64,000 nt of DNA, from positions 1-64,000 of the IMG/VR virus record IMGVR_UViG_3300050821_001198. One strand, given 5' to 3'. Each line of letters opens with the position of its first letter. The stretch's first letter is position 1. The position numbers and the translations under genes are program-made. Of this stretch, positions 3,740 to 61,211 are shown piece after piece. A model generated the notes under the pieces. That model saw only the letters and a program-made list of their open reading frames with translations, searched no databases and was not told the origin of the DNA. The stretch is from a virus.

Positions 3740-4018
3740 TCACGAGTTACCGCACCGCGTGCAGTTGGGTCCGTAGCCGAACGTACAGAGCCCGTTGGCG
3801 CACTTTGGCTTGGCGATCACTCGAACGCTCTCGGTCTCGTCCACGGCGAATACGGTCGGCGTCGGCTGCACGGGCACCACCTTGAACTCGAAGATCGATC
3901 CATAGTGTTCCGTGCGGTCACGGGATGCTTCACTTACCACGCACTCGATTCCGGCGTAAGCGCCGCGATGCGGAATTACGACATCGCCCACCTTGATACT
4001 CGCAGGGGCGGCCATCAT
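3740..4018 (-). CDS. Small beta protein with C-terminal zinc ribbon
   Basis: A 92-residue protein starting at ATG 4018, which overlaps the upstream stop (ATGA). The first part resembles a small SH3-like beta barrel (VGDVVIPHRG...). The end carries C-x4-C and C-x2-C, a typical ribbon. A longer frame upstream is Arg/Ser-rich and rejected. Confidence 0.65.
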   Translation of the reverse strand: MMAAPASIKVGDVVIPHRGAYAGIECVVSEASRDRTEHYGSIFEFKVVPVQPTPTVFAVDETESVRVIAKPKCANGLCTFGYGPNCTRCGNS

Positions 4019-4209
4019 GGCTCCAATGTTGAATCGGCGCGGGTGAAGGCGTGAAGCGGGTAGATGATGCTGTTTCCAACCTCGTCGCCTTCCGGCGGGT
4101 CGCGCGAGATGAGCAGCACACCCTCTTGAACTCGAAGATCGGTACAGCGGTCGTAGGTGGCGAGCTTGAGGCTTCCGCTGAAGACTCGAACGGTGCTGTA
4201 CGTGGGCAT
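4015..4209 (-). CDS. Hypothetical 64-residue protein
   Basis: A small beta-rich protein that overlaps the next gene by four bases and abuts the zinc protein upstream. No domain was recognised. Confidence 0.6.
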   Translation of the reverse strand: MPTYSTVRVFSGSLKLATYDRCTDLRVQEGVLLISRDPPEGDEVGNSIIYPLHAFTRADSTLEP

Positions 4210-4968
4210 TCAATCCTCCAGCTTGGGTAGGGACAGTAGACGGTCGATCCACCGATGAGCCTGGCTCTTCGAGAGACCGGCGTCGATCATGGCGGTGGCC
4301 TCTCGGCGCTCGTCAACGCTCAGGACGCGCTCGTCCATCAGGCGGTTGATGAAGGTGTGCTGGTCCTCGCTCATCGCGGGCGCTGCGGTGGCACGCAGGG
4401 CAGCGATACGGGCCTTGAGAGCGTTTATCTTGTCAGACGCCTCGCTGCGTGTAGAGACCACCGGAGGCATCTCGCCAAGCTCGGCAGCCAGCCTCCCGAT
4501 GAAGTCAACCTGCGGGCCAGTAGGACCGTCCTCGGTCCGCGTGACGTGGCCCTTGTGCCGGTCGGCGTCCGCGTCGGGATCGTAGTGCTCGGTGATGCGC
4601 GTGTCAGAAGCCCGCTTTGCCTCGGCCGTCATCTCAGGCCGGGGAACCTCGTGGACCGTGAGAATGTGGCCGCGTCCGTGATTGGCTCCGCCGCACGAGC
4701 AAGTACAATCGTGACCCTTGGCGTTGAGACAGCGAGCATCGCACTTGTGGTCCGGGGAGTAGGTCCCCTTGACCGCCCGGAGCATGAAGAACTTGTGGCC
4801 GTTCGTGCAGCGGGCGAAGACGCCGTTGTTGCCGACGCGCTTAGCGCCAGCACCGGCCGTGACAGCGCTGAAGTCCTCGACAAGCTCGATCTGCTCGTTC
4901 GTGGCGAACAGAGCGTAGTCGCAGGACTTGCAGCGTCCCAGGTAGGGCTTGTCACCGAGAGCGGTCAT
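4210..4968 (-). CDS. Protein with two N-terminal zinc sites and a helical C-terminal domain
   Basis: A 252-residue protein. Residues 13-58 carry C-x2-C...C-x3-H. Residues 76-97 carry a denser set (C76, C80, C88, C90, C92, H97) ending in a G-G-x-N-H-G turn. The second half (from ~150) is helical with a repeated region similar to small bacterial domains of unknown function. A DNA- or RNA-binding role is plausible but unproven. It lies in an early operon. Confidence 0.65.
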   Translation of the reverse strand: MTALGDKPYLGRCKSCDYALFATNEQIELVEDFSAVTAGAGAKRVGNNGVFARCTNGHKFFMLRAVKGTYSPDHKCDARCLNAKGHDCTCSCGGANHGRGHILTVHEVPRPEMTAEAKRASDTRITEHYDPDADADRHKGHVTRTEDGPTGPQVDFIGRLAAELGEMPPVVSTRSEASDKINALKARIAALRATAAPAMSEDQHTFINRLMDERVLSVDERREATAMIDAGLSKSQAHRWIDRLLSLPKLED

Positions 4969-5243
4969 TAGAGCGGCCTCACGATGGCGCGAAGCGCCGT
5001 GTCGATGTGGGTGTCGTTGTAGCCCTGATCGTAGAGATACTGGATCAGAGGTTGCGGGATGATGGGATCGTGCTCGGGACGATATGCGCCGTGGAGTAGA
5101 TCCCAGCGGTAGCGCTTGTCAAGGTTCTTGACGAGATCGGCTCGCGGGAAGTCGCCCGCCCGATACACACGACGTAGGGCGTCCGTCTCGATTCCCTCGA
5201 TGGCCGTCTTCACGATCTCGAAGTCTCTCGCTGACATCTTCAT
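4968..5243 (-). CDS. Hypothetical 91-residue protein
   Basis: A helical soluble protein starting directly before the zinc protein gene in transcription order. Part of the operon started at 5650. Function unknown. Confidence 0.65.
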   Translation of the reverse strand: MKMSARDFEIVKTAIEGIETDALRRVYRAGDFPRADLVKNLDKRYRWDLLHGAYRPEHDPIIPQPLIQYLYDQGYNDTHIDTALRAIVRPL

Positions 5244-5245
5244 GA

Positions 5246-5614
5246 TCAGAAGCCCTCCGGGCCGTAGATGGCCTCGTCGAGAAGGGCCAGAGCCTCGGCG
5301 AGGCGCTCAGCGGCGATCATCGGGGCGATGACCTCGGCGTAGTGCTCAGCCTCGTAGTCGGCCCGATCCTCGTCAACCTCGTACTCGACCTCGGGGGTGG
5401 GCTCGGTGACCTGAGCCAGCACGTCGCGGCGAAGGCCCTCGACCGTATCGGCCATGTCAAGCAGTGAGAAAGCGAGCCCGTGATTCTGAACCTCGTCGGC
5501 CCGATCTCGAAGATGGGCAACGCGGGCCTCAAGCGAGGTCAGGAGAAGATCGATGCGGGACTCGGTAAGCGTGATGCTCGCCATGCTGGCCTCCGTGATT
5601 GTGTTCGCGTCCAT
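5246..5614 (-). CDS. Hypothetical acidic helical protein, probably leaderless
   Basis: ATG 5614 lies seven bases past the TATAAT of the promoter at 5622-5650, so transcription and translation should start at about the same base. A frame beginning at 5650 would cover the promoter and is rejected. The 122-residue product is helical and strongly acidic in its second half. Confidence 0.65.
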   Translation of the reverse strand: MDANTITEASMASITLTESRIDLLLTSLEARVAHLRDRADEVQNHGLAFSLLDMADTVEGLRRDVLAQVTEPTPEVEYEVDEDRADYEAEHYAEVIAPMIAAERLAEALALLDEAIYGPEGF

Positions 5615-5621
5615 GGCTCGT

Positions 5622-5650
5622 ATTATAGCGTAGTCGGGTCGGTCGGTCAA
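5622..5650 (-). promoter_or_regulatory. Early promoter, TTGACC-17-TATAAT, leaderless output
   Basis: TTGACC (5650-5645), a 17-base spacer, then TATAAT (5627-5622). It overlaps the last codon of the phosphoglycosyl transferase gene and serves the operon that starts at 5614. Confidence 0.75.
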
Positions 5651-6231
5651 CCGCGTAGCCGCAAGACCTCAGGAAGCGTCAGCAACAGGACGCGGAGGTC
5701 GAACCGCAGAGACCAGTTCTCGATGTAGTGATTGTCGAACTCGACGCGGGTAGCGATAGGCGTCTGGCCGCGCAACCCGTTCACTTGAGCCCAGCCGGTG
5801 AGCCCCGGCTTGACGCGATGTCGGTCGGTGTAGCGGTGGATCTCGCGAGCGAACAGCGCTACGAACTCGGGCCGCTCGGGGCGCGGACCGACCAGGCTCA
5901 TGTCGCCACGCAAGACGTTGATCAGTTGGGGTAGCTCGTCAAGCGACGTAGCTCGCAGGTAACGGCCGATAGCGGTCCGCCTGTCCGCTCCCTCGACGCC
6001 GCCCGGTGCCATGCCCGTGGCAGGGACGAACTCGGACGTGTCCGAGACGCGCATCGTCCGGAACTTGAGCACGTCGAACTCGTGCCCGCCGAGACCGACC
6101 CGGCGCTGACGGAAGAGGATCGGACCACTTGAGGTCAGCTTGACCAGCAACGCGATCACAAGCAGCAGGAGACCGACCGCCAGTAGCAGCAGCGCGGCCA
6201 CCACGCGGTCGGCTGTGTGCTTGAGCGTCAC
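5647..6231 (-). CDS. Phosphoglycosyl transferase (bacterial sugar transferase family)
   Basis: A 194-residue protein with the compact layout of PglC/WcaJ-type monotopic phosphoglycosyl transferases, which move a sugar-1-phosphate onto undecaprenyl phosphate at the inner membrane. Visible features are one N-terminal hydrophobic segment (residues ~9-31), a K-F-R-T-M motif at 56-60, the catalytic Asp98-Glu99 dyad (LDELPQ), a GPRP loop and the KPGLTGW signature at 141-147. Only the catalytic core is present. It overlaps the helicase N-half gene by four bases, so the two are coupled. This is unusual cargo for a phage and probably came from a host polysaccharide locus. The sugar is unknown. Confidence 0.88.
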   Translation of the reverse strand: MTLKHTADRVVAALLLLAVGLLLLVIALLVKLTSSGPILFRQRRVGLGGHEFDVLKFRTMRVSDTSEFVPATGMAPGGVEGADRRTAIGRYLRATSLDELPQLINVLRGDMSLVGPRPERPEFVALFAREIHRYTDRHRVKPGLTGWAQVNGLRGQTPIATRVEFDNHYIENWSLRFDLRVLLLTLPEVLRLRG

Positions 6232-7178
6232 GCGGCCTCCAGTCCGACAACCTCGCTCGGCACCTTGTCGTAGCCCTCGACCCGGAGCGTGCCGGGGAGA
6301 AGGTCCAGGAACTTGTTGGCCGCTGAGGCGATGGCCGGACCGAACCGGAAGCTCTTGGTCAGCGGCAGGACGTGCTTGGCCTGGAAGCTGTCCAGCGCGT
6401 TGACCGCGCCCGTGAAGCCGTAGATTGCCTGGTTCTCGTCGCCCACCGCGATGACCTGTGCGTGCGTCTGGAGCTTGATGATGGCTGCGATCACGGGGTT
6501 GGCGTCCTGGGCCTCATCGAAGAGGATGACGCTCGCGTTGATCTTGGGGTTGCTCAAGTGGAAGAGCTTGAGGTAGATGTCGTGCGTCATGATCAGGCCC
6601 TTGTCCGTCATGCTGCTAGCCAGCGTCCAGTAGGTCTGGGCGAAGGGCAGGATGTCGGCCGCGAGCTTGGCGTGGCTGTTCTTGTCGAAGCCGTCCTGCT
6701 GCGGGACGTGGCGAGCGATGATCTCCTGGTCGGCGGAGCGGCAGAACTTGGCGACCGTGTTCTGAGCGATCCACGCGAGGGTGGAGGTCTTGAGAGTGCG
6801 CTGCGTCTGATTGCCCTCGTCATCGACTGTGATGTAGGTCTTGGTGGAGCGGATGCCCAACACCTTGGCGGCCTCCCAGGAGGGAGTCGGGTAGTTCTTG
6901 ACGCGGCCGAATGCGTTGTTGGGCTTGACGATGGCCTGATACGCGAAGCTGTGCGCCGTGCGGGCATCGGTGTTGTTGGGGAAGCGGCCCTTGGCCTCTT
7001 CCGCGATGTCCGTGTTGTAGGCGACGTAGGCCACGCTCGACTTCAGCATCGCCTCAGCGATCAGCGCCAGCGTGGAGGTCTTGCCGGTGCCCGCCAGAGC
7101 CTTGACCGTGACGTTCTCGCCCGTGAGGGCGGCGGCGATGATGTTCTCCTGCTCGGCGGTGGGTGCGAAGTTCGGCAA
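6228..7178 (-). CDS. UvrD/FBH1-like helicase, N-terminal half
   Basis: A 316-residue protein with the first half of an SF1 helicase: Walker A (AGTGKTS, ~31-37), motif II with D-E-A-Q-D, motif III (GDENQAIYGF) and motif IV start (S-F-R-F-G). It stops just where the family continues into its second RecA-like domain. The matching C-terminal half is a separate gene at 7482-8039, transcribed before this one. Start is TTG 7178 behind a GGAG site. Both halves would have to assemble to give ATP-driven DNA unwinding. Confidence 0.85.
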   Translation of the reverse strand: MPNFAPTAEQENIIAAALTGENVTVKALAGTGKTSTLALIAEAMLKSSVAYVAYNTDIAEEAKGRFPNNTDARTAHSFAYQAIVKPNNAFGRVKNYPTPSWEAAKVLGIRSTKTYITVDDEGNQTQRTLKTSTLAWIAQNTVAKFCRSADQEIIARHVPQQDGFDKNSHAKLAADILPFAQTYWTLASSMTDKGLIMTHDIYLKLFHLSNPKINASVILFDEAQDANPVIAAIIKLQTHAQVIAVGDENQAIYGFTGAVNALDSFQAKHVLPLTKSFRFGPAIASAANKFLDLLPGTLRVEGYDKVPSEVVGLEAA

Positions 7179-7210
7179 GGTGTCTCCGTTCTCAGTTGGT
7201 CGCTGCGCTT

Positions 7211-7240
7211 ATTATAGCGCAGTCTGACGGCGCTTGTCAA
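7211..7240 (-). promoter_or_regulatory. Promoter, TTGACA-18-TATAAT
   Basis: TTGACA (7240-7235) and a perfect TATAAT (7216-7211), 18 bases apart. It gives the helicase N-half and the sugar transferase their own transcription, with a leader of about 30 bases and a GGAG ribosome site. Confidence 0.75.
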
Positions 7241-7246
7241 GCACCG

Positions 7247-7480
7247 CTAGGACCCGAACTCACAGCTATGAGGGCCTTGATAAAGCTCTTTGAGCTTGTC
7301 GGCGGGGCAATGGAATTGCAGGCAGCCGTCGTATTCGCCGTGGTAGATCGTCTCGGTGTCGTCTGAGCCATGCTCTCCCAGCGCGATCCCGTTGGCCTTG
7401 GCGTACTCGATGAACTCGGCTTCTCGCTCACCCTCGTAGTACAGGTTGCGGCCGTCCGGGTAAAGAGCTTCGAGATCCAT
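7247..7480 (-). CDS. Hypothetical 77-residue protein between helicase halves
   Basis: Acidic alpha/beta protein. Start at ATG 7480 has GAGGG five bases upstream. A GTG at 7492 is the alternative. It separates the two helicase halves. No similarity to intein or intron proteins is visible. Confidence 0.65.
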   Translation of the reverse strand: MDLEALYPDGRNLYYEGEREAEFIEYAKANGIALGEHGSDDTETIYHGEYDGCLQFHCPADKLKELYQGPHSCEFGS

Positions 7481-7481
7481 G

Positions 7482-8039
7482 TCAACCCTCACAGTCGAGA
7501 TTGAAGACCCAATCGAGGGCCGTGGCGTCCAGGAAGAGCTTGGCGCGGGTGACCGCCACGTACATGAGCCGGATATCCGTCTCGCTCGGGCCGGTCTCGC
7601 TCTTGGCGGGCTTGAAGTCGCCGTGGATGAGCACGCGGTTCCACTCCAGCCCCTTGGCCTTGTGCGCCGTGATGATCGTCACGTCCGCCTGCTTGTTCCG
7701 CTGCTTCTTGTCAGCCCCGTCGATGCAGTTGGCCATCATCTCCACGATGGCATCGACGCCGTAGTTGTCGGCCAGCCGGACCATGGAGCGAAGCTCTGCG
7801 CCCTCGTCTGTCTGCGAGTACGCCTGCACGTCGGGCCAGTTGTTGAACGCCTGGAGCGCCGGGAACTTCCACGGGGACTCGCCGTTCATCAACATCTCGG
7901 CGGCCTCGCAGAACTTGCGGAGCCCTCCGAATCCACCGGACATGGTGACCTTGACCGTCTTGCCCTGGGCATGCTGCTCGATGGCCTGGGCGATGACTCC
8001 TGCGTTGGTCCGGCAGAGAATGGCGTCGAAGTCGCTCAC
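7482..8039 (-). CDS. UvrD/FBH1-like helicase, C-terminal half
   Basis: A 185-residue protein starting at GTG 8039 (GGAA-type ribosome site). It begins at the AILCRTNA motif that opens the second RecA-like domain, then has motif V (T-A-H-K-A-K-G-L-E-W) and motif VI (YVAVTRAK). It lacks a Walker A, which is in the gene at 6228-7178. The transcription order is C-half first, the reverse of the protein order. An upstream frame from 8102 covers the promoter and is rejected. Confidence 0.85.
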   Translation of the reverse strand: MSDFDAILCRTNAGVIAQAIEQHAQGKTVKVTMSGGFGGLRKFCEAAEMLMNGESPWKFPALQAFNNWPDVQAYSQTDEGAELRSMVRLADNYGVDAIVEMMANCIDGADKKQRNKQADVTIITAHKAKGLEWNRVLIHGDFKPAKSETGPSETDIRLMYVAVTRAKLFLDATALDWVFNLDCEG

Positions 8040-8072
8040 TTGGATTCCGTTCGTTCGGGGCTTGCTTCGCAC

Positions 8073-8102
8073 ATTATACCACATGATGTGGCGGGAGCGC
8101 AA
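8073..8102 (-). promoter_or_regulatory. Promoter with 13-base palindrome between boxes
   Basis: A perfect TATAAT (8078-8073) with TTGCGC 18 bases upstream. The spacer begins with CCACATGATGTGG (8079-8091), a perfect palindrome about a central base and a candidate operator. It precedes the helicase C-half gene. Confidence 0.5.
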
Positions 8103-8188
8103 GGCCCACTGTCAAGGTTATGAAATGGGTCGGCTAGTGGTAGCCCCCGATCTCGACGCCGTGTTCCTTCTGGGCACCGCTGCGCTCC

Positions 8189-8217
8189 ATTATACAGGAT
8201 CGGACCTCGGCTGTCAA
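8189..8217 (-). promoter_or_regulatory. Consensus promoter, TTGACA-17-TATAAT
   Basis: Both boxes match the SigA consensus exactly (8217-8212 and 8194-8189). The 110 bases down to the next promoter hold at most an 18-codon frame (ATG 8190), so this is a second, upstream promoter for the helicase C-half operon. Confidence 0.8.
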
Positions 8218-8220
8218 CAC

Positions 8221-8589
8221 TTAGTCGGTCGCATACTCCGCCTTGATCTTCGCCCAATCCTCGGGCACTCGGGTATCGATGGGGTCCGGATAGCCGGGTA
8301 GCTGCTCGTAGACGTGTGCCACGAACCATTGGCCAAGCTCTGCGCTCCCGATGTACTTCTTGCCCTCGGCGTGGAAGCGGTCGCCGGTCGTGACCACCAC
8401 GAACACACGGGGCGCAGACCGACACTCATAGTCACGGGGGACGGACCAATTCACCCCCGGGACCTCGGCCCACATGACTAGCATGTCGTTCTGCTTAGCC
8501 ACGGTGATAGGGTCCGCCTCGGCGGGCATCATGACTAGCTGCCGCCGGTCGGGCTCCAGCGTGTACTTGAGGATGCGCGTCTCGCTCAC
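8221..8589 (-). CDS. Conserved actinophage-type small protein
   Basis: A 122-residue protein starting at GTG 8589, overlapping the upstream stop (GTGA). The layout (beta strand with Y-x-L-E, a G-T-G-D-R-F loop, then W-F-V-A-H-V-Y-E) resembles a small family often seen in actinobacteria and their phages, whose function is unknown to me. The longer frame from 8628 is not needed. Confidence 0.65.
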   Translation of the reverse strand: MSETRILKYTLEPDRRQLVMMPAEADPITVAKQNDMLVMWAEVPGVNWSVPRDYECRSAPRVFVVVTTGDRFHAEGKKYIGSAELGQWFVAHVYEQLPGYPDPIDTRVPEDWAKIKAEYATD

Positions 8590-8891
8590 CGCCGAGAGAC
8601 CTCTCCGGTCCCGTGACAGCGCCAGCATCGCTCGGTGGCCTTGTTCGGGTGGTACCAGCCCGCCATCTCGAAGAGGGTGGCGAGCAAGATCCAGAGCCCG
8701 ATCAGCAGGGCGATACCAACCGCCATCCAGAGGATGATCTCGACCATACCTGGAAGCAGGCGAGCGCTCTTGGGGAACGGCCAGACAGTCTGGGAGCTTC
8801 CTCTGACTTCCCAGAGCCCAAACAGCGCTCCGAGAGCCATCGTCACCAGAATGGTGATTGCGGTGAACTTGGCGAAGACCTTGCGTGTCAT
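8586..8891 (-). CDS. Membrane protein with C-terminal DnaJ-like Cys motif
   Basis: A 101-residue protein with two predicted membrane helices (residues ~8-28 and ~48-75). A cytoplasmic tail ends in C-W-R-C-H-G-T-G, the half-zinc motif of DnaJ-type domains. The role is unknown. Confidence 0.7.
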   Translation of the reverse strand: MTRKVFAKFTAITILVTMALGALFGLWEVRGSSQTVWPFPKSARLLPGMVEIILWMAVGIALLIGLWILLATLFEMAGWYHPNKATERCWRCHGTGEVSRR

Positions 8892-8965
8892 TTCTTCGCG
8901 TCTCCCGTCTTGACCTTGTGGCCGCCCATGTTGAGGGACAGCCCGGTGACCTTGCTCACGCTCAT
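8888..8965 (-). CDS. Micro-ORF, 25 residues
   Basis: A basic peptide (Lys-rich C terminus) whose start and stop both overlap the neighbouring genes by ATGA. This double coupling makes it a likely translated gene in spite of its size. Confidence 0.55.
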   Translation of the reverse strand: MSVSKVTGLSLNMGGHKVKTGDAKK

Positions 8966-9147
8966 GACTGAGCCTTGGCGAGACGGAGCGCCTCGCGGGT
9001 ACCGGCGTGGCCGCGCGTGAGAGCCCTCTGGAGCTTCTCCTGCGTGCTCAGGCGGTCGTAGGCTGCCTGGCGGGTGTCCGCGTCCTCCTGGCGCTGTGCG
9101 AGCCTGTCAGGACGTGTGTGATTGTGACTGCGAGCACGATGGCCCAT
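8962..9147 (-). CDS. Small basic helical protein, 61 residues
   Basis: Start at ATG 9147 behind GAGAGG. Very rich in Arg, His, Gln and Ala. The helical second half (Q-R-A-L-x-R-G-H-x-G-T-R-E-x-x-R-L) could bind nucleic acid. A longer frame upstream is less likely. Confidence 0.6.
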   Translation of the reverse strand: MGHRARSHNHTRPDRLAQRQEDADTRQAAYDRLSTQEKLQRALTRGHAGTREALRLAKAQS

Positions 9148-9313
9148 ATGGTGCCTCTCCCCGCTGGCGAGACCGTGGCCGCGTCCAGCTTGAGTAGTAG
9201 GTGATGCGTGCCGGTTGTTCGCAAACGAACCGATCTCCGCTAGTGTAGGGACTCTCGAAGTCATCCGCAAGGACGTATTCGAGGAACTGCATCAGTTGGA
9301 GTAGCCGGATCAC
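9107..9313 (-). CDS. Hypothetical 68-residue protein
   Basis: GTG start at 9313 overlaps the upstream stop. The first 45 residues look coding. The Ser/Arg-rich tail overlaps the next gene by 41 bases, so its true end is less certain. Confidence 0.5.
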   Translation of the reverse strand: MIRLLQLMQFLEYVLADDFESPYTSGDRFVCEQPARITYYSSWTRPRSRQRGEAPYGPSCSQSQSHTS

Positions 9314-9519
9314 GACGCGGCAACCTCATCGAGAGAGGCGATCACTCGGTCAAGCTCACTGAAGGGCCGGACGGTGATGTAGTAGTTTGAGGTCTCATCG
9401 GCCGCAGCTTGCAGCCGGTCGATCTGATCCTGATTGTTGACCAGCACCCGAAAGAGGACCCGGCCGCCATAGCCGTCAGTGACCTCCGCGATCTTGGTCT
9501 TGAACTCCATGGCGGGCAT
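9310..9519 (-). CDS. Hypothetical 69-residue protein
   Basis: Start at ATG 9519 (TGATG with the upstream stop). An alpha/beta fold with a regular strand-helix-strand pattern. Function unknown. Confidence 0.6.
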   Translation of the reverse strand: MPAMEFKTKIAEVTDGYGGRVLFRVLVNNQDQIDRLQAAADETSNYYITVRPFSELDRVIASLDEVAAS

Positions 9520-9752
9520 CAGCGGTGGCTCCCCTGATCGTCTCCAACGTAGCCTCGTTGGCTCCATGCAGCCCGCTCGTTCGCGGCGCGGATGATCGCG
9601 TCAAACGCTTCGGTCCACGCCTGAACATTCCCTAGGTAGCTGTCCTGCGACCGGACCCACGCTCGGGCCTCGTCGCTGACGTGGATGTAGGCGTATGGCT
9701 GGCGATCAACGAGAGCGGCAAGCTGCTCGTCGGTAAGTTCGAGTGTGACCAT
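9519..9752 (-). CDS. Hypothetical 77-residue protein
   Basis: Start at ATG 9752 (TAATG junction). N-terminal T-D-E-Q-L-A-A-L helix, then a Trp-containing helical half. No family was recognised. Confidence 0.6.
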   Translation of the reverse strand: MVTLELTDEQLAALVDRQPYAYIHVSDEARAWVRSQDSYLGNVQAWTEAFDAIIRAANERAAWSQRGYVGDDQGSHR

Positions 9753-10180
9753 TACGAACCCCACTTCCCGGCCGTCAGGAGATCTTCGCGCGGCTCGTGA
9801 TCCGGAAAGAAGCTGCGGACGTGCATGACGGCTAGGCTCGTCTCGATAGGTAGCCGACTGTCTGAGTCAATGATCCGGGCGTTCGCCACGCTCCGGTCCT
9901 TACCGTCCGGCGAGTAGCAGTTCTTGAAGTAGCCGTAGACCTGGCTCAGCCATTCCTCGGTCGGCTCCATCTCAGCCGCTGCGTACAGCAGGGCGATCTC
10001 GGCCTTGATCTCGGCGGGCACGTAGTCCTGATCGATGGCATGCAAGAGGCTAAGGCTACTCGCCTCCTTGCCATTGGCATAGCGCTCGACCACATGGTAC
10101 TCACGCTGCGGTGAGCCCGGAGGGTCCAGGAAGCTACTCATGCTCCCGGCGACGATACGGAACTTGTTGGGGCGAGGCAT
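9752..10180 (-). CDS. Hypothetical 142-residue protein
   Basis: A soluble helical protein ending one base pair into the next gene's start. No motif of known function is visible. Confidence 0.65.
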   Translation of the reverse strand: MPRPNKFRIVAGSMSSFLDPPGSPQREYHVVERYANGKEASSLSLLHAIDQDYVPAEIKAEIALLYAAAEMEPTEEWLSQVYGYFKNCYSPDGKDRSVANARIIDSDSRLPIETSLAVMHVRSFFPDHEPREDLLTAGKWGS

Positions 10181-10413
10181 CAGACCTCCCGGAAATCGTA
10201 TTGGAGAGCGTTCTTGAGGATCTCGCGGAAGCCATCCTGCGGCGTCCCATAGGTGCCTGGCGTGAAGCCGAGACCAAGCTCGACCTCGGTTGAGTAGCTC
10301 GGGTGCGGCTGTCGGCGGAGGCGCTCCTGCTCGTCCTCGTCGTAGACGCCGTAAAGCTCCCAGCGGATCGATTGGCCGTTACCGGCCTCGTGTCGTTCGA
10401 GCTTGAGGATCAT
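10180..10413 (-). CDS. Hypothetical 77-residue protein
   Basis: ATG 10413 overlaps the upstream stop by four bases. The N-terminal beta strand and acidic centre show no recognised domain. Confidence 0.6.
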   Translation of the reverse strand: MILKLERHEAGNGQSIRWELYGVYDEDEQERLRRQPHPSYSTEVELGLGFTPGTYGTPQDGFREILKNALQYDFREV

Positions 10414-10715
10414 GACTCGTCCCGGTTGTAGTGAAGTTGGACGCACGGTGCGAAGTGAACATCGTGCAGATACGGCGAGTAGTCGGCGGGGTCGCTCGGG
10501 TCATACTGGAAGTTGCCCGGGTCGTAGATGTTCTGAACTACCTCATCGACGCTCGACGCCTCGATGGTCCAGCCGTTCTCAGCCTCTTCGCGAATGGCTC
10601 CGCGCTTGAGATCGGCGCAACCCTCGGCGTGGACGTGGAAGGTACCCTGGCGCTGAAGCGAGCCGGGAAGGTTGGGGCCGACGATTGTGACGCGCTGGCT
10701 CATGATTGTGGTCAT
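10410..10715 (-). CDS. Hypothetical 101-residue protein, leaderless
   Basis: ATG 10715 lies six bases past a TATTCT -10 box, so a leaderless message is expected. A start at 10733 would lie in the promoter. The protein is beta-rich with two Cys and two His and may bind metal. Confidence 0.65.
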   Translation of the reverse strand: MTTIMSQRVTIVGPNLPGSLQRQGTFHVHAEGCADLKRGAIREEAENGWTIEASSVDEVVQNIYDPGNFQYDPSDPADYSPYLHDVHFAPCVQLHYNRDES

Positions 10716-10721
10716 GGCTCT

Positions 10722-10751
10722 AGAATAGCACAAGTGCTAGTCCGTTGTCAA
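10722..10751 (-). promoter_or_regulatory. Promoter, TTGACA-18-TATTCT, leaderless output
   Basis: TTGACA (10751-10746) and TATTCT (10727-10722). The start codon of the gene below follows six bases later. It overlaps the 3' end of the upstream gene. Confidence 0.7.
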
Positions 10752-10934
10752 CCCGTCCCAGAGAACGGAGAAGTTCAGACCCGTCCTAACGACTCGACCG
10801 GCCTCATTGATGAAGTGCTCGACGCCGTTGGGCGTCGTAGCCCTCACCAGACCGTCTGTGTAGCCCTGTGAGACTGCCACGCGGCCGTGCTTGAGCGCGA
10901 GCCGCTCGATTGCGTTGTCGATCTCTCGGGCCAT
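10737..10934 (-). CDS. Hypothetical 65-residue protein
   Basis: A small alpha/beta protein joined to the micro-gene upstream by TGATG. No family was recognised. Confidence 0.6.
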   Translation of the reverse strand: MAREIDNAIERLALKHGRVAVSQGYTDGLVRATTPNGVEHFINEAGRVVRTGLNFSVLWDGLTTD

Positions 10935-11047
10935 CAGACGTTCCTCCGGATGTAGGCGGTCCCGTTGTCCTCGGCCATCTCACGGCGGAGATCGGCCACG
11001 CTCTCGCCGTATTCCTCGGCGTACTCGTAGATGTTGAGGCGGCTCAT
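10934..11047 (-). CDS. Micro-protein, 37 residues
   Basis: Starts at ATG 11047 (ATGA overlap with the upstream gene) and ends in TGATG with the next. Helical, with E-Y-A-E-E-Y-G-E-S-V-A-D-L-R-R resembling a short DNA-binding or toxin-antitoxin-like helix. It is too short to classify. Confidence 0.55.
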   Translation of the reverse strand: MSRLNIYEYAEEYGESVADLRREMAEDNGTAYIRRNV

Positions 11048-60400: not shown

Positions 60401-60407
60401 GACTAAG

Positions 60408-60481
60408 CTGGGGAGGCAGGGCTCGAACCTGCGACATGCGGACTAACCACCACGCCGCTCTACCAACTGAGCTACTCCCCA
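60408..60481 (-). tRNA. tRNA, probably Thr(GGT) (Asn(GTT) possible)
   Basis: Acceptor TGGGGAG / CTCCCCA (7 pairs), D-arm GCTC/GAGC and T-arm GCAGG-TTCGAGC-CCTGC are all sound. The anticodon arm has a mismatched stem and an apparently eight-base loop. With U33 in register the anticodon is GGT. Overall similarity is to tRNA-Asn. CCA is not encoded. Confidence 0.75.
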
Positions 60482-60488
60482 AGGAGCC

Positions 60489-61211
60489 CTACCGAACCTC
60501 ATCTACAAACCCTAGCTTGAGAGCATCGTCGGCCGTCATCCACCAGTCCTTACGATCCCAATTGCGCTTGATGAACGCCTTGGTGGTCTTGGGATTGATG
60601 GGCTTCGACCGTTCCTCGAAGATATCAAGGATACGCTCGTGAAACAAGCTCATGAGACGAACCCGATCCTCGACCTGGGCAAAATCACCGATTGCGCCCA
60701 ACGATCCCTGATGGAGTAGGAGGATGCAGTTCTTGCCCATGATCCGCGTCGTGCCAACCTGGAGGATGACGCCGCCCATCGACGCTGCCACCCCAAGAGC
60801 CACCGTGTTGACAGTGTGACCCTTGTCTTGGAGAGACCTGATGAAGTCCACAAGCGCAAGGCCCGCGAAGATCGATCCACCGGGCGAGTTGATCTGAACC
60901 TCAATCTCGCACTCGGGGTTGAGACGTGACCACTCGGTCAGTTTGGTAATGCACGACTTCACCGTATTGTCATCGACTTGTTTGTCGAAGACGTAGACGA
61001 AGTTGTTGGAGTTGTTGGCTTGCTCGGCCGCTTCCTCGCGCTGCTTCGTGCGTAGATTGATGGCACTGATCATGGCATCGTTGCCCGCCTTCTGGGCCTG
61101 TGCCGAGAAGAGGTCGCGTTCGGCCAAGCGAACCTCGGCCAACGCCTCGAATGCGGCGATCTCCGCCTTATGAAGCGGTCGGGTAGTGTCTGCCTTGTCT
61201 GGGGCTGGCAT
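60489..61211 (-). CDS. clpP: ClpP-like serine protease
   Basis: A 240-residue protein. After a charged helical N-terminal extension of ~70 residues comes the ClpP/crotonase-like core: N-S-P-G-G-S (108-113), catalytic Ser144 in A-S-M-G, His167 in L-L-L-H-Q-G. In phages such proteins may mature the head or act with host Clp ATPases. No scaffold or capsid gene is adjacent, so a role in proteolysis rather than head maturation is suggested. Confidence 0.88.
   Translation of the reverse strand: MPAPDKADTTRPLHKAEIAAFEALAEVRLAERDLFSAQAQKAGNDAMISAINLRTKQREEAAEQANNSNNFVYVFDKQVDDNTVKSCITKLTEWSRLNPECEIEVQINSPGGSIFAGLALVDFIRSLQDKGHTVNTVALGVAASMGGVILQVGTTRIMGKNCILLLHQGSLGAIGDFAQVEDRVRLMSLFHERILDIFEERSKPINPKTTKAFIKRNWDRKDWWMTADDALKLGFVDEVR

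What the first reader, a model, noticed from the sequence alone, without database searches (positions are those of the whole stretch)
6228..8039. SF1 helicase split into two genes in swapped order
The UvrD/FBH1-like helicase is cut cleanly between its two RecA-like domains. The C-terminal half is transcribed first, then a 77-codon gene and a promoter, then the N-terminal half. Simple fission would keep the order, so a duplication with reciprocal loss or a circular permutation is needed. No intein or intron remnant was seen.
Basis: partly seen in the sequence, partly recalled or inferred. Interest (0 to 1): 0.72.

Follow-up and report, generated by a model that had tools for sequence, protein, structure and literature searches.

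The report
Phage helicase in two swapped genes
A soil-type phage encodes one DNA-unwinding motor as two separate proteins whose genes stand in the reverse of the usual order; both pieces look intact and probably snap together into a working enzyme, a rare twist on the known habit of phages to carry enzymes in pieces.

Summary
On the minus strand of a 128-kb phage record the order is C-half (8039-7482), a 77-codon ORF (7480-7247), a 12/12 sigma-70-like promoter (7240-7211), then N-half (7178-6228). Both halves belong to one family (PHROG 1967; FBH1-like SF1 helicase), cover it without a missing stretch, and keep the family's invariant residues. Each half is predicted to fold well alone, and both share a strong codon bias that the small ORF lacks. 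In a census of fetched relatives, 408 loci (335 distinct) carry the helicase as one intact N-then-C frame; only the window has C before N. Clean splits in normal order occur in another phage group (L112, L104, L228, probably L116), some with genes lodged between the halves.

The cut lies inside the second RecA-like domain (after motif IV, before motif IVa), not between the two domains. Duplication or circular permutation is not required: fission followed by movement of one half would also do. No remnant was found that could decide. Most likely the two proteins reassemble into one helicase, as in other phage genes-in-pieces; this is inferred, not shown. It is a new variant of a known kind.

The parts
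7482..8039 (-). C-half of the helicase, GTG start, 185 aa: rest of domain 2A with motif IVa (AILCRTN, about 8004-8024), motif V (TAHKAKGLEW, about 7641-7676) and motif VI (MYVAVTRAK, about 7536-7568)
   Evidence: PHROG 1967 482-665 and PF13361 (on the 206-aa frame); keeps 97% of 33 conserved columns; AlphaFold pLDDT 92, pTM 0.85; best PDB fold match FBH1 9xzj
7247..7480 (-). 77-codon ORF M between the halves; its ATG lies one base after the C-half stop (TGAcATG); no known relatives
   Evidence: no Pfam, NCBIfam, phage or IMG/VR relative; its GC3 of 0.74 is that of an ordinary gene of this phage
7211..7240 (-). sigma-70-like promoter upstream of the N-half: TTGACA-18-TATAAT, 12 of 12
6228..7178 (-). 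N-half of the helicase, TTG start after GGAG, 316 aa: domains 1A/1B with motif I (ALAGTGKT, about 7077-7100), II (FDEAQD, about 6504-6521) and III (about 6420-6443), plus the first strand and helix of domain 2A with motif IV (LTKSFRFG, about 6339-6362)
   Evidence: PF00580, PHROG 1967 150-449; AlphaFold pLDDT 95.6, pTM 0.91; best PDB match FBH1, TM 0.76
8189..8217 (-). sigma-70-like promoter upstream of the C-half/M pair: TTGACA-17-TATAAT, 12 of 12; a second TATAAT box lies near 8070
5647..6231 (-). neighbour: WcaJ-like sugar transferase; its GTG start overlaps the N-half stop (GTGA)
   Evidence: PF02397 E 1.4e-62; TIGR03023 E 2.7e-84, below that model's cut-off
4210..4968 (-). neighbour g7; a homologue lies downstream of the intact helicase in all four near relatives, so the N-half keeps the ancestral downstream neighbour

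Best explanation
This is one FBH1-like superfamily 1A helicase gene that has become two genes in swapped order, both still in use. The N-half protein carries the ATP-binding domain (1A, with 1B) and the first strand and helix of domain 2A. The C-half protein carries the rest of 2A, including the motif V and VI arginine-finger region. ATP binds between 1A and 2A, so neither half has a complete active site; the two proteins most likely bind each other without a covalent link and rebuild domain 2A. Shown by computation: the split, the order, completeness, kept motifs, shared codon bias and confident folds. Inferred: that the halves associate and that the complex unwinds DNA. How the order was reversed (tandem duplication with loss of opposite halves, or fission followed by movement of one half) cannot be told from this sequence. 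Nothing suggests that the 77-codon ORF between them takes part.
For: The halves cover PHROG 1967 in complementary stretches. In the alignment the N-half ends where the C-half starts, with about 4 columns of overlap and nothing missing. All residues invariant in 46 and 35 homologues are present, and conserved columns are kept as well as in intact relatives: 0.918 against 0.916 for N, 0.970 against 0.905 for C. GC3 of the halves is 0.922 and 0.902, rank 1 and 3 of 97 genes (mean 0.69, sd 0.07), against 0.74 for the ORF between them; in the four intact near relatives the helicase also has raised GC3. Each half is predicted to fold confidently, and both have FBH1 as best PDB match. In phages, split RNR and split DNA polymerase are functional (PMC2988022). 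Gene ends are ordinary and both units have their own promoter.
Against: No second genome with this arrangement was found, so conservation of the split itself is untested. Both halves sit on fairly long branches (1.09 and 0.86, about twice the median). The record may be incomplete (linear, 128 kb; several relatives are 140-170 kb), so an intact second copy outside it is not excluded.
Confidence: 0.7

Rival explanations
1. The helicase as such is lost: the halves are relics or have separate new jobs. The N-half would act alone as an ATPase, for example as a decoy or DNA-binding protein, and the C-half would be drifting.
For: Helicase presence is patchy in this phage group: only 5 of 31 capsid-related records have it, several of the 31 being short fragments. 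Fragments of Plasmodium UvrD cut within motif IV were reported to have ATPase and helicase activity on their own (PMC3503981).
Against: Both halves keep conserved columns and codon bias equally well, each has a start codon, a promoter and a confident fold, and motifs V and VI in the C-half are intact though they have no known use without motifs I and II.
Confidence: 0.17
2. Assembly artefact: a chimeric contig or a tandem repeat collapsed in the wrong order.
For: Only one metagenome-derived record has the arrangement, and an exact junction sequence was found nowhere else in IMG/VR; that collection may leave out near-identical records.
Against: Both cut ends are proper gene ends: the N-half stops within about one residue of the cut in GTGA overlap with the next gene, and the C-half starts at the cut with a ribosome-binding-like site and a promoter. 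A misjoin would run on into unrelated frames. No left-over copy of either half is present.
Confidence: 0.04
3. The two polypeptides are joined after synthesis, for example by a split intein or by trans-splicing of the RNA, giving a single-chain helicase.
For: The cut is clean and loses no residues, as splicing would require.
Against: The N-half stops and the C-half starts without extra residues that could form an intein; no intron family matches 5500-8800 even at E up to 1.
Confidence: 0.02

Closest known systems
Intact phage FBH1-like helicases of PHROG 1967 (e.g. L002 in IMGVR_UViG_3300048502_000015, 474 aa)
   Same: Same motifs, same order along the polypeptide when N and C are joined, 48% identity in each half
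   Different: One reading frame, N before C, in all 335 distinct intact members examined
Collinear split helicases of another phage group found here (L112, L104, L228, probably L116)
   Same: Same family, cut in the same loop between motif IV and motif IVa; genes may be inserted between the halves
   Different: N before C in L112, L104 and L228, cut about 20 residues earlier, adjoining genes overlapping by ATGA in L112 and L104; different phage group (about 25-30% identity)
Phage genes-in-pieces: Aeh1 nrdA split by mobE, phage 25 gene 43A/43B, T4 topoisomerase gene 60 with mobA (PMC2988022)
   Same: One enzyme encoded as two polypeptides that must reassemble
   Different: Those are tied to a homing endonuclease or an intercistronic insert at the cut; here there is none between the halves and the order is reversed
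Split DNA polymerase III alpha of group 2.2 jumbo phages (PMC7824862)
   Same: A replication enzyme split into N and C proteins likely to reconstitute
   Different: Halves encoded far apart; a polymerase, not a helicase
Circularly permuted proteins arising by duplication or by fission and fusion (PMC3320104)
   Same: Order of the halves exchanged, as an unfused intermediate of the fission-and-fusion model would show
   Different: Not fused: two genes with an unrelated ORF and a promoter between

Membership tests
UvrD-like superfamily 1A helicase (PHROG 1967, FBH1-like) | Walker A/B and motif III in a UvrD N-terminal domain | tested here: met
   PF00580 67.1 bits over cut-off 23; G30, G32, K33, T34, D221, E222, Q224, D225, G246, D247 and Q250 invariant with 45 relatives
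UvrD-like superfamily 1A helicase (PHROG 1967, FBH1-like) | Motifs V and VI in a UvrD C-terminal domain | tested here: met
   PF13361 45.8 bits over cut-off 25.6 (206-aa frame); T124, H126, K129, G130, Y160 and R165 invariant with 34 relatives
UvrD-like superfamily 1A helicase (PHROG 1967, FBH1-like) | Both halves in one polypeptide in N-then-C order | tested here: not met
   Two frames, C before N
UvrD-like superfamily 1A helicase (PHROG 1967, FBH1-like) | ATP-dependent 3'-5' unwinding | not testable with these tools
   Needs purified proteins
Phage genes-in-pieces | Gene split into separate frames that together cover the intact relative | tested here: met
Phage genes-in-pieces | Homing endonuclease or intercistronic insert at the cut | tested here: not met
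   The ORF between the halves has no family match; a GIY-YIG gene exists only about 120 kb away
Phage genes-in-pieces | Polypeptides reassemble into an active enzyme | not testable with these tools
   No complex prediction or assay available
Circularly permuted protein | Single polypeptide with C part before N part | tested here: not met
   Stop codons, an ORF and a promoter separate the parts; no relative has C before N in one frame

The most novel reading that the evidence does not exclude
The swapped two-gene helicase is a live intermediate on the way to a circularly permuted SF1 helicase, and separate promoters for the C- and N-halves let the phage set the time or level at which the motor is completed, with the ORF between them (M) as a possible regulator or third subunit.
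Probability: 0.1. Interest if true: 0.7.

Novelty: new variant of a known kind. Interest (0 to 1): 0.45.

Why it matters
Phages with enzymes in pieces are known for RNR, DNA polymerase, RNA polymerase and topoisomerase. My text searches of the held library found no paper on a phage SF1 helicase split in this way or in reversed order. The split falls inside a RecA-like domain, so if it works, a helicase motor domain can be completed in trans. Taken with the collinear splits and gene insertions in L112, L104 and L228, it offers a natural series from intact gene through split gene and split gene with inserted genes to reversed order. That is the kind of intermediate expected by the fission-and-fusion model of circular permutation and rarely seen.

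Tried and rejected
Remnants of the missing halves: profile search of six frames over 4000-11000 with filters off found only the two known halves; nucleotide comparison of the halves with their flanks gave only 9-14 base chance matches. Trees of each half to see whether they come from different sources: the window is an unresolved deep branch in both, so they neither prove nor exclude different origins. Relatives of the 77-codon ORF in phages, IMG/VR, Pfam and NCBIfam: none. RNA intron families: none. Horizontal transfer as cause of the high GC3: less likely, because the intact helicase is also GC3-rich for its genome in four relatives. Cases that looked split but are not clean: contig ends (L028, L075, L102, L115, L268, L294), broken bacterial copies (L499, L504, L509) and L042 (a low-scoring C part within one very long frame), all set aside. 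Relatives cannot be drawn for a virus record. Exact junction search in IMG/VR: nothing.

Full report
What is there. The window is the first 64 kb of a 128,248-base virus record classed as linear. It is a myovirus-like phage: capsid protein 50-53% identical to Mycobacterium phages (such as Tonenili and Alice) and Rhodococcus phages Finch and E3, plus DnaE polymerase, RecA, RuvC, a class II ribonucleotide reductase and RIIA/RIIB. On the minus strand the order is: promoter 8217-8189 (12/12 match to TTGACA/TATAAT), C-half 8039-7482, ORF M 7480-7247, promoter 7240-7211 (12/12), N-half 7178-6228, and a WcaJ-like sugar transferase 6231-5647 whose GTG overlaps the N-half stop. No terminator-like site was found between M and the N-half, so all may also be read through from the first promoter (inference).

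The two halves are one helicase. N matches PF00580 and PHROG 1967 positions 150-449; C matches PF13361 and PHROG 1967 positions 482-665. Joined, they align end to end with intact relatives: the N tail SEVVGLEAA and the C head VSDFDAILCRTN lie over STVEILSDPDAILCRTN of L002, with about four columns of overlap and nothing missing. L002 is the nearest intact protein to both halves (48.2% and 48.5%), and the identities of N and C to the relatives in the alignment rise and fall together (Spearman 0.72).

Where the cut is. N residues 195-298 align with E. coli UvrD 193-304 (3lfu), which runs past motif IV. The predicted structure of N ends with strand 269-273 and helix 281-291. By the standard domain map of UvrD (my knowledge) these are the first elements of domain 2A. 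The C-half starts with a strand followed by the R10/N12 pair that corresponds to motif IVa, whose Arg362 and Asn364 touch single-stranded DNA in D. radiodurans UvrD (PMC3797037). So the cut is in the loop between motif IV and motif IVa inside the second RecA-like domain, not between the two RecA-like domains. The same loop is used in the collinear splits described below, though about 20 residues earlier, so it may be a tolerant site.

Both halves look alive. All columns invariant over 46 N and 35 C sequences are kept; conserved columns are kept as well as in intact relatives. AlphaFold models are confident (N pLDDT 95.6, pTM 0.91; C pLDDT 92.0, pTM 0.85), and the best PDB fold match for both is FBH1, 9xzj/9xzm. 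GC3 is 0.922 for N and 0.902 for C, first and third of 97 genes of at least 120 aa (mean 0.69, sd 0.07), while M has 0.74. In four intact near relatives the helicase also has higher GC3 than its neighbours (0.72 against 0.56; 0.77 against 0.53; 0.66 against 0.42; 0.79 against 0.70). So the two halves share a codon signature of the gene, and M does not.

How unusual is the order. Profile searches for N and C in the six frames of all fetched loci found 408 loci with both in one frame (335 distinct), always N then C. Exceptions with clean gene ends: the window (C, M, N); L112 (N and C overlapping by ATGA); L104, about 93% identical in the C-half, where a 54-codon ORF sits exactly at that ATGA junction; L228 (N, then about 1.3 kb with small ORFs, then C); and L116 (C preceded by an ATGA-overlapping 251-aa ORF, N off the contig). 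Thirty records with a related capsid gene were searched along with this one: five of 31 have the helicase and four of those have it intact. In all four a homologue of window gene 4210-4968 lies downstream of the helicase; in the window it lies downstream of the N-half, so the C-half is the part found in a new place, relative to that one marker.

How it arose. Two routes remain: tandem duplication with loss of the first N and the second C, or fission in place (as in L112) followed by movement of one half with its promoter. The roughly four-column overlap of the two linker ends would fit duplication, but the linker is variable and the point is weak. No remnants were found.

How it most likely works. 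By analogy with split RNR and split DNA polymerase of T4-like phages, which are functional (PMC2988022), the two proteins are expected to bind and rebuild domain 2A, bringing motifs I-IV of one chain and V-VI of the other around ATP, which sits between 1A and 2A (PMC3797037). That they bind and unwind DNA is inference. The role of the helicase in the phage (recombination or repair, as suggested for UvrD-type helicases of jumbo phages in PMC7824862) is also inference.

Limits. One record, no reads, possibly incomplete; no complex prediction; near-identical records may be hidden from the searches. The literature library held no report of a split phage SF1 helicase by my terms, but it lacks most subscription papers.

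Noticed in passing
L112:1680-1860, L104:2260-2560, L228:2029-4792, L116:409-1772: Another phage group carries the same helicase as two genes in normal order; in L104 a 54-codon ORF has been inserted exactly at the ATGA junction that is empty in the close relative L112, i.e. gene insertion between split halves.
   Followed up: partly
window 5647-6231: A stand-alone catalytic domain of a WcaJ/EPS-type sugar transferase in a phage, overlapping the N-half stop; possibly alters the host's surface polysaccharide.
   Followed up: partly
window 60407-60481: ARAGORN reports a tRNA with a four-base anticodon (ggtt) next to a Clp protease-like gene (60489-61211).
   Followed up: no
L132:3862-4413 (record 126862-127413): GIY-YIG endonuclease gene near the right end of the record, the only homing-endonuclease-like gene noticed; far from the helicase.
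   Followed up: no
L130:1198-4266 (record 84198-87266): A 1022-aa protein with the N-terminal domain of the major tropism determinant (Mtd_N), otherwise known from a diversity-generating retroelement target.
   Followed up: no
whole record: Helicase halves and many genes of the 4-19 kb region have higher GC3 than the structural genes, which suggests strong codon selection in an early region.
   Followed up: partly
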